DNA from: Pyrobaculum oguniense TE7
GTDB taxonomy: Archaea > Thermoproteota > Thermoprotei > Thermoproteales > Thermoproteaceae
Assembly: GCA_000247545.1 (NCBI GenBank)
Contig: CP003316.1
Coordinates: 1,273,233-1,337,232, forward strand
Length of the DNA: 64,000 nt
Reading direction: 5' to 3'
The notes under the pieces are model-generated. The model was not told the origin of the DNA. It ran no database searches and was given only the letters and a program-made list of their open reading frames with translations. Every line of letters begins with the position of its first letter. Within the stretch, counting starts at the first letter, position 1. Positions 10,979-24,907 of the stretch are shown piece by piece. The position numbers were made by a program, and so were the translations under genes.

Positions 10979-12625
10979 ATGGTCGATAGGTGGGTTGTGG
11001 CTGGCCTGGCTCTAGCCTTGGCCGTCAGCGCCGCCGCGCTTTTTGTTGCATATACACACTGCCCGAGGGGGCTCCCCGCGGCCCCTCCAAAGCCTAAGAT
11101 AGTCCTAGTGCCTATCGACTTCGTTCTGGACTCGTCCCCAGTTGACGGGGTTATACGCGACCTTGTTAGCCTTGCTCAGCGCAAGGACGTGGCTGGGGTG
11201 GTGCTGGTGATAAACTCGCCTGGCGGGACGGTGTCGGCAACTGAGGCGCTCTATTCGGCGCTGGCCGGGCTGAACAAGACAAAATACGCCGTGGTGAGCG
11301 GGCTGGCCGCCTCCGGCGCCTACTACGTCGCTGTGGCCGCCGAAAAGATATACGCAACGCCGTCGAGCTGGGTGGGGAGCATCGGCGTGGTTGCAGTTAT
11401 GTGGCCCGACGAGTATTTCTACGACATCCCCGACTACGTCTACACCACAGGTCCGCTGAAGTACTACGGCAAGGAGCTCACCGACTACTATAACGACATA
11501 GAGAGAGTGAGGATGAACTTCGTGCAGGCCGTGCTAAGGGGCAGGGCTGGGAGGATAAAGGTAGATCCCCAGGTTTTTGAGACAGCGGCTGTCTTCACGG
11601 CCGAGGATGCGCTACGGCTGGGCCTAGTAGACGCGGTGGGCGGCGTCTTCGACGCAGTGAGGGATATGGCCCAGAGGCTTGGGCTTAAGGAATACGAGGT
11701 GAAGTTCCTCCGCGAGCTCGGCAACGCCACGGCTTCTCCAGGCGCCGCGTTTAGGGTTGACCTGGAGAGGCTGATGAACTCCACACCGGTCCCCATCTTC
11801 TACATCCTCCCCACGGCGGTGCAGTGGCGGGTGACCACAAACGGGGCCTCCAACGCCACGACTCCTGCCCCTGCCAGGCCCGAGAAGCCCTACGTCCTGC
11901 TCGACCTAGCCCACAACAACATGGTGCCGAGGAGCTTTATAGAGGTCCTCAGGGCAGAGCTGGCGCAGAGGGGGTACGTCTTAGTAACCGCCTCTAGCGA
12001 GTACCAGCTCACCACGCTCCTCTCAAACGCCACCGCCCTCGTGGTGGTGAACCCCACAGCTCCTTTCAGCAGAGACGCCGTTAGGGCCGTGCTGAACGCC
12101 ACGGCTAGGGGAGTCAGAGTCGCCTACTTCTACGACCTCAGGGCAAGCGCCATAATCACGGTCAGCGGCGTCTCCTACGTGGCGCCCTACTCCCTCTACG
12201 CCGTTTTTGACCCCTTGCCAATGTACTACAACATGTCGGGGCTGAGGGCCGTCTACAACTTCACGGCAGGCGCGCTCAACTACACCCAGAACTGGCAGTA
12301 CGTCGAGGCTAAGCCCAAGGGCAATTGGACATTGCTGAGAGGCGTGGAGAGGCTCCTCCTCTTCAGCCCGTCGGCAGTGTCGACAAACGCGCCGCATAAG
12401 CTGGAGGTAAGGGGCTACGTTTTCGGCTACGGCTGGGGGAACTACACAGTGGCGGCGCAGGCCGGCAACTTCACCTTTATAGGCGCCGTGCGCTCCTTCA
12501 CACCATACTTCATAACGTTGGCAGACAACTGGCGCTTCTTTAAGAACGTCGTGGATTGGCTCGTCGAGCCAAGACCTATTGAGAGGAAACAGGGCCCCAT
12601 CTCAGCCGTGATATATACGAGTTGA
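10979..12625 (+). CDS. sppA: SppA-type (S49) membrane-anchored serine protease with extra C-terminal domain
   Basis: A box attatatagg about 25 bases upstream favours this ATG, giving 548 residues. Residues about 5-25 form a signal anchor. The ClpP/S49 fold follows with INSPGGTVSATEA, the nucleophile Ser112 in GLAASGAYY, WVGSIGV, and a Lys candidate at 161-165 (GPLKYYGKE). After residue about 270 comes a second domain starting KPYVLLDLAHNN with many Asn-X-Ser/Thr sequons. It resembles a Rossmann or GATase-like extracytoplasmic domain, and I do not recognise a named family for it. S49 enzymes degrade remnant signal peptides or membrane proteins. Its 3' end overlaps the convergent broken DHH gene by 50 bases. 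Confidence 0.85.
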   Translation: MVDRWVVAGLALALAVSAAALFVAYTHCPRGLPAAPPKPKIVLVPIDFVLDSSPVDGVIRDLVSLAQRKDVAGVVLVINSPGGTVSATEALYSALAGLNKTKYAVVSGLAASGAYYVAVAAEKIYATPSSWVGSIGVVAVMWPDEYFYDIPDYVYTTGPLKYYGKELTDYYNDIERVRMNFVQAVLRGRAGRIKVDPQVFETAAVFTAEDALRLGLVDAVGGVFDAVRDMAQRLGLKEYEVKFLRELGNATASPGAAFRVDLERLMNSTPVPIFYILPTAVQWRVTTNGASNATTPAPARPEKPYVLLDLAHNNMVPRSFIEVLRAELAQRGYVLVTASSEYQLTTLLSNATALVVVNPTAPFSRDAVRAVLNATARGVRVAYFYDLRASAIITVSGVSYVAPYSLYAVFDPLPMYYNMSGLRAVYNFTAGALNYTQNWQYVEAKPKGNWTLLRGVERLLLFSPSAVSTNAPHKLEVRGYVFGYGWGNYTVAAQAGNFTFIGAVRSFTPYFITLADNWRFFKNVVDWLVEPRPIERKQGPISAVIYTS

Positions 12626-13537
12626 GTTCCTCTACGAAGACGTCAAAGAGGCGCTTCGGGATGCGCGCCCCCGCGGCGTTTTTGTGGCCGCCGCCAGATA
12701 CGGAGTGGCGCCGGGCAAAATCCCTTAGGAACTGGTTTAGGTCTACTTGGCTGGAGCGGAGGCTCATCACGTATAGGTCCCCCCTCTCCTCCGCCGCCAC
12801 CCCCACGGGCGATTCTGTGAGGCCCCTTGCTAGGTTGGCCGCGAGGCCGAGGGGGCCTGGGGGGTTCACCACGTAGGCCACGCCGCCTTTTTAGAGACGT
12901 GCCGCTCGACCCAGCCCACTAGGGCCTCGTTTATCCTCGCCTGCTCTTCCGCCAGCTTCATGAGCCTCTCCATGGAGGGGGGTCTTGTTCTCGGCTAGGT
13001 GATCCACCACCGCCCGCTTAAAGTCGTGGTCTTTGCGCGCCCGCTCCAATCCCTGCATGAGGACCCCAGCCTCGAAGTACACAATACGCTTGTTCCACTT
13101 CTCCAGCGCCGACTTGACCCACACGGTATAGTCCATATAATCACTAATGGCGCCGTACAGCGCAACCCGGCTGTAAGAAGGGGGCAACGACTCCTTCAGC
13201 CTCCTGTACGTGAGCTCCGAGGCGAAGGGGCCTCTTCGTGGACCACCTCGGCCCCGGCCAAATCTACCGGCAAGGGGTGGTGGTCGAGGTACACGACCCT
13301 GCCGCCGTAGGCTCGGAACAGCCTCTGGACCTCCTGGGCCGCCTTCTCGTCTATCGCCACGTCTACTATGTAGACGTCTCCCCTTGCGTATTGCTGGAAG
13401 TCCTTTGGCAGATCCACCGGATGTGTGAATATCACCTGAATTTCGCCGTATTGCCCTCTCAGCGCCGCCTTCACCAATGCCGCCGAGCAGACCCCGTCTG
13501 CGTCGCCGTGTGCCAGTATCGTCAACCGCCTGTCCAT
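12576..13537 (-). pseudogene. DHH/DHHA1 phosphoesterase (RecJ/NrnA-like), interrupted by three frameshifts
   Basis: Three consecutive pieces on one strand rebuild a 320-residue protein. Piece 1 has HGDADGVCSAAL, VDVAIDE and YLDHHPLP, the DHH metal motifs. Piece 2 has VALYGAISDYMDYT. Piece 3 has VSGGGHKNAAGARIP, the DHHA1 substrate motif. The frame shifts near 13221-13228 (ASELTYRR reads on in the new frame), in the G6 run at 12977-12982, and near 12886-12893. The joined length needs one extra base in total. The protein would be a 3'-5' exonuclease or oligonucleotide/cyclic-dinucleotide phosphodiesterase. Sequence on both sides of each lesion is well preserved, so the damage is recent or a sequencing artefact. 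Confidence 0.8.
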
Positions 13538-13566
13538 GGCTTATATATATCGGTGGAGTTTATAAC

Positions 13567-14055
13567 GTGCGAGCCTTGTACATTTATTCCAGGGACTGGC
13601 GTGACGAGCGTGTCTACAGCCTCTACAGGGCCTTCACGGTGCTTCTCCAGAAGCAGAGGGCCTACGCGCTTGAGAGAATTCTGGAAAAGCGACCCTCCAG
13701 GGCGCTGGTCTTCACCTATCCATGTGGCTGGCACGGCGACGTCCTCTTCCTCGCCCCTTACGTAGTCGCCGTGGGGCCTTTTGACAGAGGCGCGTTGGTG
13801 GATTTCGTCATGTCTCTCCCCGACAGGGTAGCCCTGACGTTGTTGGAAGGCGGCTGGACAGTGGAGGAGGTGTTCAAGGAGTTCGGCCCCTTCGACGTTG
13901 GGGTGGCATGCATGGGGGCGCCCGTGGCGGGGGTTAGGAGGTACGTCCACAAAATGATTGTGGTAAAAATCGGCGGGCCCCTCGGCGAGCTGATCTCAGC
14001 CCTCTACGCCCCAGAGGAGGAGGACGCAGACGAGGTGATCACGCCGCCTTTATGA
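13567..14055 (+). CDS. Hypothetical protein, first gene of a small-GTPase operon
   Basis: A box ttatatatat lies about 22 bases upstream of this GTG, so I start the protein here, with 162 residues. It begins VRALYIYSRDWRDERVYSLY. Notable parts are ALVFTYPCGWHGDVLFLAPY, GVACMGAPVAGVRRYVHKM and an acidic end EEEDADE. It looks like a soluble alpha/beta protein and no family is recognised. Its stop overlaps the GTPase start as ATGA. The fixed overlap with a GTPase suggests a regulator or effector, by position only. The promoter region is shared with the divergent DHH gene. Confidence 0.75.
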   Translation: MRALYIYSRDWRDERVYSLYRAFTVLLQKQRAYALERILEKRPSRALVFTYPCGWHGDVLFLAPYVVAVGPFDRGALVDFVMSLPDRVALTLLEGGWTVEEVFKEFGPFDVGVACMGAPVAGVRRYVHKMIVVKIGGPLGELISALYAPEEEDADEVITPPL

Positions 14056-14522
14056 AAAAATATGTGGTGCTCATCGGCGTCGGGGGCGTGGGGAAGACTA
14101 CCCTGGTCTACAGACTCGCCGGGGTTCCCATTGCGCCCTCGCCTACGAAACGCCCCGGCATATATCGCATACGGGCGGAGGCGGGCGACTACTACATCCT
14201 CGACCCGCCGGGGCAGTACATAGACGAGGTCGTGGAGTCGCTACTGAGGATCGCGCACATGTACTTCGACCGCGCGTTGCTCATGTACGACTTGACGAGG
14301 TACGACACCCTACAAGCGCTTTACCAAATCGCCGAGGAGATGTGCGTAAGAGGCCGGTGCATAGCCGCTAGGGAGGTCTGGACAGTGGGCAACAAGAGGG
14401 ACGTAGCCGCCAGCATAGGAGTCGAGCACGAGCCAGACCTCACCCTACTCCACGCCGGCAGATACGTTAAAATATCCGCCCTCGTAGATCCCTTAGAGAA
14501 GCTGGCGGAGCTGTTGCCATGA
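14052..14522 (+). CDS. Ras/Arf-like small GTPase
   Basis: A 156-residue protein with all guanine-nucleotide motifs in order: G1 GVGGVGKTT (residues 9-17), a Thr-containing switch-I region (PSPTKRPGIYRI), G3 DPPGQ (51-55, with the Gln typical of Arf/Ras switch II), G4 GNKRD (113-117) and a G5-like ISAL (about 146). It is a free-standing domain without a membrane anchor. Archaeal small GTPases of this kind are relatives of MglA/Rag-type switches; the role is unknown. It overlaps both neighbours by four bases, so all three proteins are probably made together. Confidence 0.88.
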   Translation: MKKYVVLIGVGGVGKTTLVYRLAGVPIAPSPTKRPGIYRIRAEAGDYYILDPPGQYIDEVVESLLRIAHMYFDRALLMYDLTRYDTLQALYQIAEEMCVRGRCIAAREVWTVGNKRDVAASIGVEHEPDLTLLHAGRYVKISALVDPLEKLAELLP

Positions 14523-15166
14523 TCTGCCAAATGCTAACAAGGGGCGCGATGTGCTCGGAGGCGTATAGAAGGGGAGAGCCCCCCCTCTTCTTTAAGAAGC
14601 TTGGCATCCCGCTGGGGCTCCCCGTGGGGAGGTGTACGGAGGCTGAGCAAGCAGCGGCCTGGGTGGTGGACCGCTTGCTCATCCCATATTTCGAGGGCAG
14701 AGAGGTGAGGGTCAGCGACGATGTGCTGGCGGCGCTTGAGACCCTTTCTCTAGGCCTCATCCCGCTCGAGGCCGAGCTCAGCGCCTACATACCTGAAGAC
14801 CCCGTCGCCGTATATGCAAGTCCCTGTGTCTTTGGCTTAGGGCTTAGAAAGAATATAGTCGTCACCGGCCCGCCCTCCGTGGTTAGGAGGCTAGAGGCCT
14901 TTCTCAAGCCTAGGGGGGAATTCGTCATATTTGACGAGGGGGGAGATGAGGCCGTGGTGAAGTACGGCGTAGAGGCTGCGGTTGGCTGCCTGGCCAAGCC
15001 GCCTCTACCTGTAAAGAGCTACGTAATTATGTGCCTCGAGCACCAATGGATCGGCGACTTACTGGCCAGGGCTCTGGGCCTGGAGCCGGCCAGAGAGGGC
15101 GCCCAAATACAGCTCCGCAACGCCGGGCTCCTCATCAGTCACCCCAAGAAAAAATATAGCCGTTAG
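14519..15166 (+). CDS. Hypothetical protein, third gene of small-GTPase operon
   Basis: A 215-residue cytoplasmic protein beginning MICQMLTRGAMCSEAYRRG. It contains VAVYASPCVFGLGLRKNIVV, GPPSVVRRLEAFLKP and CLEHQWIGDLLARALGLEP, and has five to six cysteines. Its composition is that of a folded alpha/beta protein. I do not recognise the family. Its start overlaps the GTPase stop (ATGA), so it is a candidate effector, GAP or exchange factor of that GTPase. That role is inferred from coupling alone. A/T-rich DNA follows the stop. Confidence 0.75.
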   Translation: MICQMLTRGAMCSEAYRRGEPPLFFKKLGIPLGLPVGRCTEAEQAAAWVVDRLLIPYFEGREVRVSDDVLAALETLSLGLIPLEAELSAYIPEDPVAVYASPCVFGLGLRKNIVVTGPPSVVRRLEAFLKPRGEFVIFDEGGDEAVVKYGVEAAVGCLAKPPLPVKSYVIMCLEHQWIGDLLARALGLEPAREGAQIQLRNAGLLISHPKKKYSR

Positions 15167-23851: not shown

Positions 23852-23855
23852 TATA

Positions 23856-24907
23856 TTGTTTAGGGACAGACCAGCGGGGACTCTCGACGTGTTGTTTGAC
23901 CGAGAGGCCGAGGTAGAGAGCTTACTAGACGCCGTTGGTAAAGCTACCTTGACTTTCGTCATCTGGATGGGGGAGGGTTGGAAAAACGTCGGTAGTTAAG
24001 TCAGCTACACACGGAAGGCTCCGGGTTTATATCGACGCAAGGGTTTTCGAAGATAGGCCCTACATCTCGTGCCAAGACTTTCTGGAGGCTCTAGTGGCGG
24101 AGATGAGGCGGCTTCTGCCCTTCCACATGAGGCTCGCCGAGCTTTTGTCCAGGGTGAGAGGCATTGCAGCTGCAGGAGTTAGCGTGGAGTTCAACACCGG
24201 CAGGTTGGCCCCCAACTTCGCCGACTTGATGGAGGTTTTCGACCAGTGGCTAGGTGAGCGGGGCGAGAAGCTGATATTTTGACGAAGCCCGGAGCTGGCC
24301 AAGCTGGGAGCGAGGATGTTGCTACCCGCCTTCGGATACGCCTACGACTACTTGAGGAACATCCCCTTCGTCTTCACCGGCTCTAAGGCTGGGCTACTTC
24401 TGAAATTCCTCAAGCTGGAAGACCCCGAGAGCCCCCTTTTTGGGCGGTACGCAGAGAGGCTCGAAAATAGGCCCTTCCCCCGGGAGCTGGCGCTGAGGTT
24501 CCTTAGAGGGGGTTCAGCCAGGCCGGGGTAAGGGTTGACGAAGGCCTCATACAGAAGGCAGTCGACGAGCTGGATGGCGTCATCGGATGGCTGGCCTACT
24601 TCGGCCTCAGGGCGTTGAGGAGGCCCTCGAACATGCCACAAGGCTAGCCGCCTCTGAGTCCTGCCTCTTCGTCCGCTACACGGGCTCAAAGCGGTATATA
24701 GAGGCGGCGAAGATATGCATACACGGCGCGAGGTGGTCGGACGTAAAGCGCTACCTCCAGGCGGCAGAGGGGAGGAGAATCACAGACGGCGAAGTCACCA
24801 AGATTCTTCGAAACTTGGTCAACTACGGCTTTCTTGAAAAAAGAGGCGATCTCTACGTCGTGCCGGACCCCGCCTTGCGGAAGGCGCTGGAGGCGCTTAG
24901 GTGTTAG
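23856..24907 (+). pseudogene. Archaeal AAA ATPase (PF01637-like), multiply frameshifted
   Basis: From a TTG: LFRDRPAGTLDVLFDREAEV, then WMGEG runs out of frame exactly in the P-loop. Two bases appear lost from ggt-tgc-gga, and GKTSVVKSA follows in the next frame. It continues LRVYIDARVFEDRPYISCQD. The Walker B region is damaged (LIF-stop-RSPELAKL; FDEAR is visible in a neighbouring frame). Then come YAYDYLRNIPFVFTGSKAGL, another shift near 24530 (AVDELDGVIGWLAYFG), and one more near 24600 before VKRYLQAAEGRRITDGE and a C-terminal winged helix GFLEKRGDLYVVPDPALR. At least three frameshifts and one stop make it a clear pseudogene. Its 3' end overlaps the stomatin gene by four bases. Confidence 0.85.

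What the first reader, a model, noticed from the sequence alone, without database searches (positions are those of the whole stretch)
12576..13537. DHH-DHHA1 phosphoesterase gene broken in three places but otherwise pristine
All metal and substrate motifs survive in three overlapping frames. The lesions are single-base indels, one in a G6 run. Loss of a RecJ/NrnA-like enzyme would matter for DNA repair or oligonucleotide turnover. Good conservation around the lesions suggests very recent loss, programmed frameshifting or sequence error.
Basis: partly seen in the sequence, partly recalled or inferred. Interest (0 to 1): 0.6.

Follow-up and report, generated by a model that had tools for sequence, protein, structure and literature searches.

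The report
Recently broken DHH nuclease pseudogene
In the hot-spring archaeon Pyrobaculum oguniense, a gene for a RecJ-like nucleic-acid-cutting enzyme has been knocked out by three small deletions too recently for the rest of it to decay; this is an ordinary recent gene loss, made slightly more interesting because a related species has broken the same gene independently and another has lost it completely.

Summary
In detail: a DHH-DHHA1 gene on the minus strand (13537 to 12576) runs through three frame breaks with every recognisable catalytic and DHHA1 motif kept. The window is Pyrobaculum oguniense TE7, identified by exact contig lengths. DNA alignment to seven relatives corrects the lesions: one base lost at a GG dinucleotide (about 13221), a net two-base loss beside the G6/C6 run (12974-12983), and one base lost at an A5 run (about 12890). 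This is a genuine, very recent pseudogene. Six Pyrobaculum genomes keep a single open frame of 311-325 aa and a seventh has an open partial copy. The read-through copy shows no relaxed selection (omega 0.030 against 0.033). In 128 kb of conserved coding sequence from the same chromosome, frameshifts cluster in five genes and no lone single-base break was seen, so random 454 error is unlikely. Programmed frameshifting has no conserved site. The gene is dispensable: P. aerophilum carries a differently broken copy and P. calidifontis lacks it. An NrnA-like DHH gene and the RecJ/Cdc45-like gene beside S15 remain intact. Within Pyrobaculum, loss goes with heme-copper oxidases (Fisher p = 0.015, post hoc, one exception). 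Low interest.

The parts
12576..13537 (-). DHH-DHHA1 phosphoesterase pseudogene (about 320 codons), start at 13537, stop at 12576
13223..13537 (-). Piece 1, frame 0: DHH motifs I-III (HGDADG, VDVAID, DHHP)
13220..13223 (-). Lesion 1: one base lost at a GG dinucleotide; frame 0 -> 2
12984..13220 (-). Piece 2, frame 2: motif IV (ISDYMD) and linker
12974..12983 (-). Lesion 2: net two-base loss beside a C6 run (G6 on +); frame 2 -> 0
12893..12973 (-). Piece 3, frame 0: helical linker
12888..12892 (-). Lesion 3: one base lost at an A5 run; frame 0 -> 2
12576..12887 (-). Piece 4, frame 2: DHHA1 domain (SGGGHKNAAG) and C-terminus; its last 50 bases overlap the convergent S49 peptidase gene that ends at 12625
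13540..13553 (.). TATA-rich stretch between the divergent starts (13537 on -, 13567 on +); possible promoter, read by eye only

Best explanation
A genuine, recently inactivated chromosomal gene (pseudogene). A standalone DHH-DHHA1 phosphoesterase, probably a nuclease or nanoRNase acting on single-stranded or short oligonucleotides (inferred from family), became dispensable in this lineage and took three small deletions. A ribosome now leaves the true frame after about 105 codons and stops soon after, so no motif IV or DHHA1 domain can be made. Shown: the frame breaks, intact orthologues, an independent break in P. aerophilum, absence in P. calidifontis, and an intact paralogue. Inferred: that the protein is not made and that the paralogue or other nucleases cover for it.
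For: Three breaks in 962 nt. Intact single-frame orthologues in G003, G004, G005, G006, G007 and G009, and an open partial one in G008. In P. aerophilum a 7-nt deletion plus a 45-nt deletion in DHHA1, at different sites, while the nearer relatives of P. aerophilum are intact, so the breaks are independent. P. calidifontis has no trace and its synteny stops at the S49 peptidase gene. Frameshifts elsewhere on the chromosome sit in four other genes, mostly several per gene and often of 2-22 nt; the chance of such clustering under uniform error is about 0.0002-0.002. With no lone single-base break in 128 kb, an upper-bound error rate gives P(3 or more in this gene) of about 2e-6. The genome paper counts 35 pseudogenes (PMC3558965).
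Against: The copy shows no decay beyond the lesions: omega is 0.030 against 0.033 in the background, and 12 of 176 normally invariant residues are changed, like intact controls. The assembly is 454-based (PMC3558965), and lesions 2 and 3 touch homopolymer runs. P. arsenaticum, the closest relative, could not be examined. The frameshift scan can miss breaks near gene ends.
Confidence: 0.85

Rival explanations
1. Sequencing error: 454 homopolymer miscalls broke an intact gene in the database record only.
For: The genome was assembled from 454 reads. Lesions 2 and 3 lie at runs of 5-6 bases. Selection is undiminished.
Against: Lesion 1 is at a dinucleotide and lesion 2 is a net two-base change. 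There was no lone single-base frameshift in about 128 kb of tested coding sequence. Reported coverage is 59x with quality over Q40 for 99.95% of bases. A sister species independently has a broken copy.
Confidence: 0.12
2. Programmed ribosomal frameshifting joins the four pieces into one protein.
For: All motifs survive in the overlapping frames.
Against: It would need three successive shifts in mixed directions. Relatives are in one frame, and the runs at the junctions are not conserved.
Confidence: 0.02
3. The pieces are kept for another purpose, such as a short N-terminal protein or an antisense or regulatory role against the convergent S49 peptidase gene.
For: The first 105 codons are intact, and the 3' end overlaps the peptidase gene by 50 nt.
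Against: The 3' overlap is normal gene packing and intact relatives have it too. The N-terminal piece lacks motif IV and DHHA1.
Confidence: 0.03

Closest known systems
Intact Pyrobaculum orthologues (P. ferrireducens-like G003, strain 3827-6 G009, strain WP30 CP012158, P. islandicum, P. neutrophilum)
   Same: 66-74% protein identity, same motifs, same neighbours in G003 and G009
   Different: They have one open frame of 311-325 aa
P. aerophilum IM2 copy (G001 1652504-1653414)
   Same: Same gene, same neighbours, also frame-broken
   Different: Different lesions: a 7-nt deletion and a 45-nt deletion in DHHA1
Archaeal RecJ / GAN nucleases (PDB 5ghr, 5x4h)
   Same: DHH plus DHHA1 architecture and motifs; among the best-scoring solved relatives
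   Different: They are about 470-500 aa; this family is about 320 aa and fails their family cut-offs
NrnA/pApase-type DHH proteins (NF053633; PDB 3w5w, 8iu7)
   Same: Size and domain order
   Different: Sequence match is weak; the second DHH gene of this genome (L002, 296 aa) is closer to this type

Membership tests
DHH-DHHA1 phosphoesterase superfamily | DHH domain above Pfam cut-off | tested here: met
   PF01368 30.1 bits against 28.1
DHH-DHHA1 phosphoesterase superfamily | DHHA1 domain above Pfam cut-off | tested here: met
   PF02272 43.1 bits against 25.9
Archaeal RecJ / GAN (NF053576, NF053575, TIGR00644) | Family score cut-off | tested here: not met
   52.7 of 360, 25.5 of 850 and 40.8 of 396.9 bits, tested on the intact orthologue L003
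NrnA oligoribonuclease/pAp phosphatase (NF053633) | Family score cut-off | tested here: not met
   15.1 of 350 bits, tested on L003
NrnA or RecJ by activity | Substrate and polarity of hydrolysis | not testable with these tools
   Needs biochemistry on an intact orthologue
Thermoproteales RecJ/Cdc45-like replication protein (arCOG05692) | Encoded next to S15, S3 or Pcc1 (PMC3307487) | tested here: not met
   A different, intact 351-aa gene sits between S15 and a Pcc1-sized ORF; the DHH gene lies 1.15 Mb away
Pseudogene | Frame broken where orthologues are intact | tested here: met
Pseudogene | Relaxed selection | tested here: not met
   omega 0.030 against 0.033; fits a very recent loss, and synonymous sites are near saturation
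Pseudogene | No full-length product | not testable with these tools
   Needs proteomics or ribosome profiling
Programmed frameshift gene | Slippery site conserved in orthologues | tested here: not met
   No shared runs at the junctions; relatives are in one frame

The most novel reading that the evidence does not exclude
Loss of this DHH enzyme is convergent and tied to oxygen respiration. Within the genus, four of the five genomes with strong heme-copper oxidase genes have it broken or absent (P. oguniense, P. aerophilum, P. calidifontis, MAG G010), while all six without them keep it (Fisher p = 0.015). The enzyme would then serve something anaerobic life needs and aerobic life does not. Exceptions are G003 in the genus and G016 in the family; across the family p = 0.07. 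The test is post hoc and not corrected for phylogeny. Prediction: P. arsenaticum, an obligate anaerobe (PMC12794621) and the closest relative of P. oguniense (PMC3558965), should have an intact gene.
Probability: 0.1. Interest if true: 0.45.

Novelty: new member of a known kind. Interest (0 to 1): 0.17.

Why it matters
It is mainly a corrected annotation: a real pseudogene, not an assembly slip and not a frameshifting gene. It shows that this standalone DHH-DHHA1 enzyme is dispensable in Pyrobaculum. The repeated loss offers a small comparative handle on what this uncharacterised DHH family does.

Tried and rejected
The first found no relative; the second returned only strain WP30 and two MAGs, not P. 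arsenaticum. The structure prediction of the WP30 orthologue from two sequences was poor (mean pLDDT 58.7), so no fold search was run. Three apparent frameshifts in the background scan (G000 1136309, 1270119, 1283285) were judged, from their translations, to be antisense ORFs or over-extended starts in P. aerophilum. The terminator-like and promoter-like hits are bacterial consensus matches inside the gene and were ignored. A literature search on mutator or mismatch-repair status in P. aerophilum found nothing held. That this gene is the archaeal Cdc45 was considered and rejected.

Full report
Identity of the window. The window is G000:C1:1273233-1337232, in a genome of two contigs of 2,436,033 and 16,887 bases. 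These are exactly the chromosome and extrachromosomal element lengths published for Pyrobaculum oguniense TE7, assembled from 59x 454 reads and scaffolded with SOLiD mate pairs, with 35 pseudogenes counted (PMC3558965).

Observation. On the minus strand from 13537 to 12576 a DHH-DHHA1 protein is readable in four pieces, in frames 0, 2, 0, 2. No further stop lies in the joined pieces. All recognised motifs are kept, and Pfam scores both domains above cut-off. Alignment of the DNA with intact orthologues places the breaks at about 13221 (one base lost, at a GG dinucleotide), 12974-12983 (net two bases lost, beside the C6 run) and 12888-12892 (one base lost, at an A5 run).

Relatives. Six Pyrobaculum genomes hold an intact single-frame orthologue of 311-325 aa, and one draft holds an open partial copy. 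Contig lengths or record titles identify strain WP30, strain 3827-6 and P. calidifontis (2,009,313 bases; size known from general knowledge). Also from general knowledge of genome sizes: P. aerophilum IM2 (2,222,430), P. islandicum, P. neutrophilum and P. ferrireducens. P. aerophilum has the gene broken in other ways: a 7-nt deletion and a 45-nt in-frame deletion in DHHA1. Its nearer relatives, G003 and G009, are intact (tree), so the two inactivations are independent. P. calidifontis and the MAG G010 have no match. In P. calidifontis the shared gene order stops at the S49 peptidase gene, and the divergent neighbour is gone too. Outside Thermoproteaceae in the order, only weak partial matches are found.

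Error or decay. In 128 kb of P. oguniense coding sequence with orthologues at hand, five genes carry genuine frameshifts: this one; an ATPase-like gene in the same window; and three genes outside it. Most have several lesions each, often deletions of 2, 4, 5, 7 or 22 nt. Three further candidates were artefacts of ORF choice. Uniform error would scatter single lesions; clustering of this degree has a simulated probability of about 0.0002-0.002. With no lone single-base break seen, the 95% upper bound on the error rate makes three errors in this gene very unlikely (about 2e-6). Limits: BLAST misses breaks near gene ends, and error could cluster locally.

Age. A branch model gives omega of 0.030 on the P. 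oguniense branch against 0.033 elsewhere. Normally invariant residues have changed in 12 of 176 columns, inside the range of intact controls.

What was lost. The family sits between archaeal RecJ/GAN and NrnA-type proteins by sequence but fails the family cut-offs of each. Its activity is unknown; an exonuclease or nanoRNase is the reasonable inference. The genome keeps a second DHH gene of 296 aa, closer to NrnA. It also keeps the 351-aa gene between S15 and a Pcc1-sized ORF, whose position matches the inactivated RecJ/Cdc45-like replication protein described for Thermoproteales (PMC3307487). Identity of the latter rests on position only.

A post hoc lead. The PMC3558965 authors list P. aerophilum, P. 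calidifontis and P. oguniense as the oxygen-respiring species of the genus. These are the three named species in which the gene is broken or absent. Using strong heme-copper oxidase matches as a proxy, the gene is intact in one of five oxidase genomes and in six of six others within the genus (p = 0.015), and in two of eight against eight of eleven in the family (p = 0.07). This was noticed after the fact, is not phylogenetically corrected and has exceptions (G003, G016). P. arsenaticum is the obvious test and could not be reached here.

Verdict. An ordinary recent pseudogene, with repeated loss in the genus as the only mildly interesting aspect.

Noticed in passing
window 23853-24904 (+): A second multi-lesion pseudogene: an ATPase-like protein (P-loop motif GMRRVGKTS in relatives) of 360 aa in P. 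aerophilum, G003 and G009, with at least three frame changes including 5-nt and 22-nt deletions.
   Followed up: partly
G000:C1:1140561-1141267, 1219534-1221431, 1271374-1271909 (L063, L067, L069): Three further broken genes outside the window, with several indels or a 4-nt deletion; the first two look like a creatininase-type and a transporter-type protein by eye.
   Followed up: partly
window 13567-14055 (+): Divergent neighbour gene of 162 aa with no Pfam match; present in P. aerophilum, G003 and (elsewhere in the genome) strain WP30, absent together with the DHH gene in P. calidifontis and G010.
   Followed up: partly
window 14052-14522 and 14519-15166 (+): A small Ras-like GTPase followed by a gene with no Pfam match, in an order conserved with P. 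aerophilum, G003 and G009.
   Followed up: no
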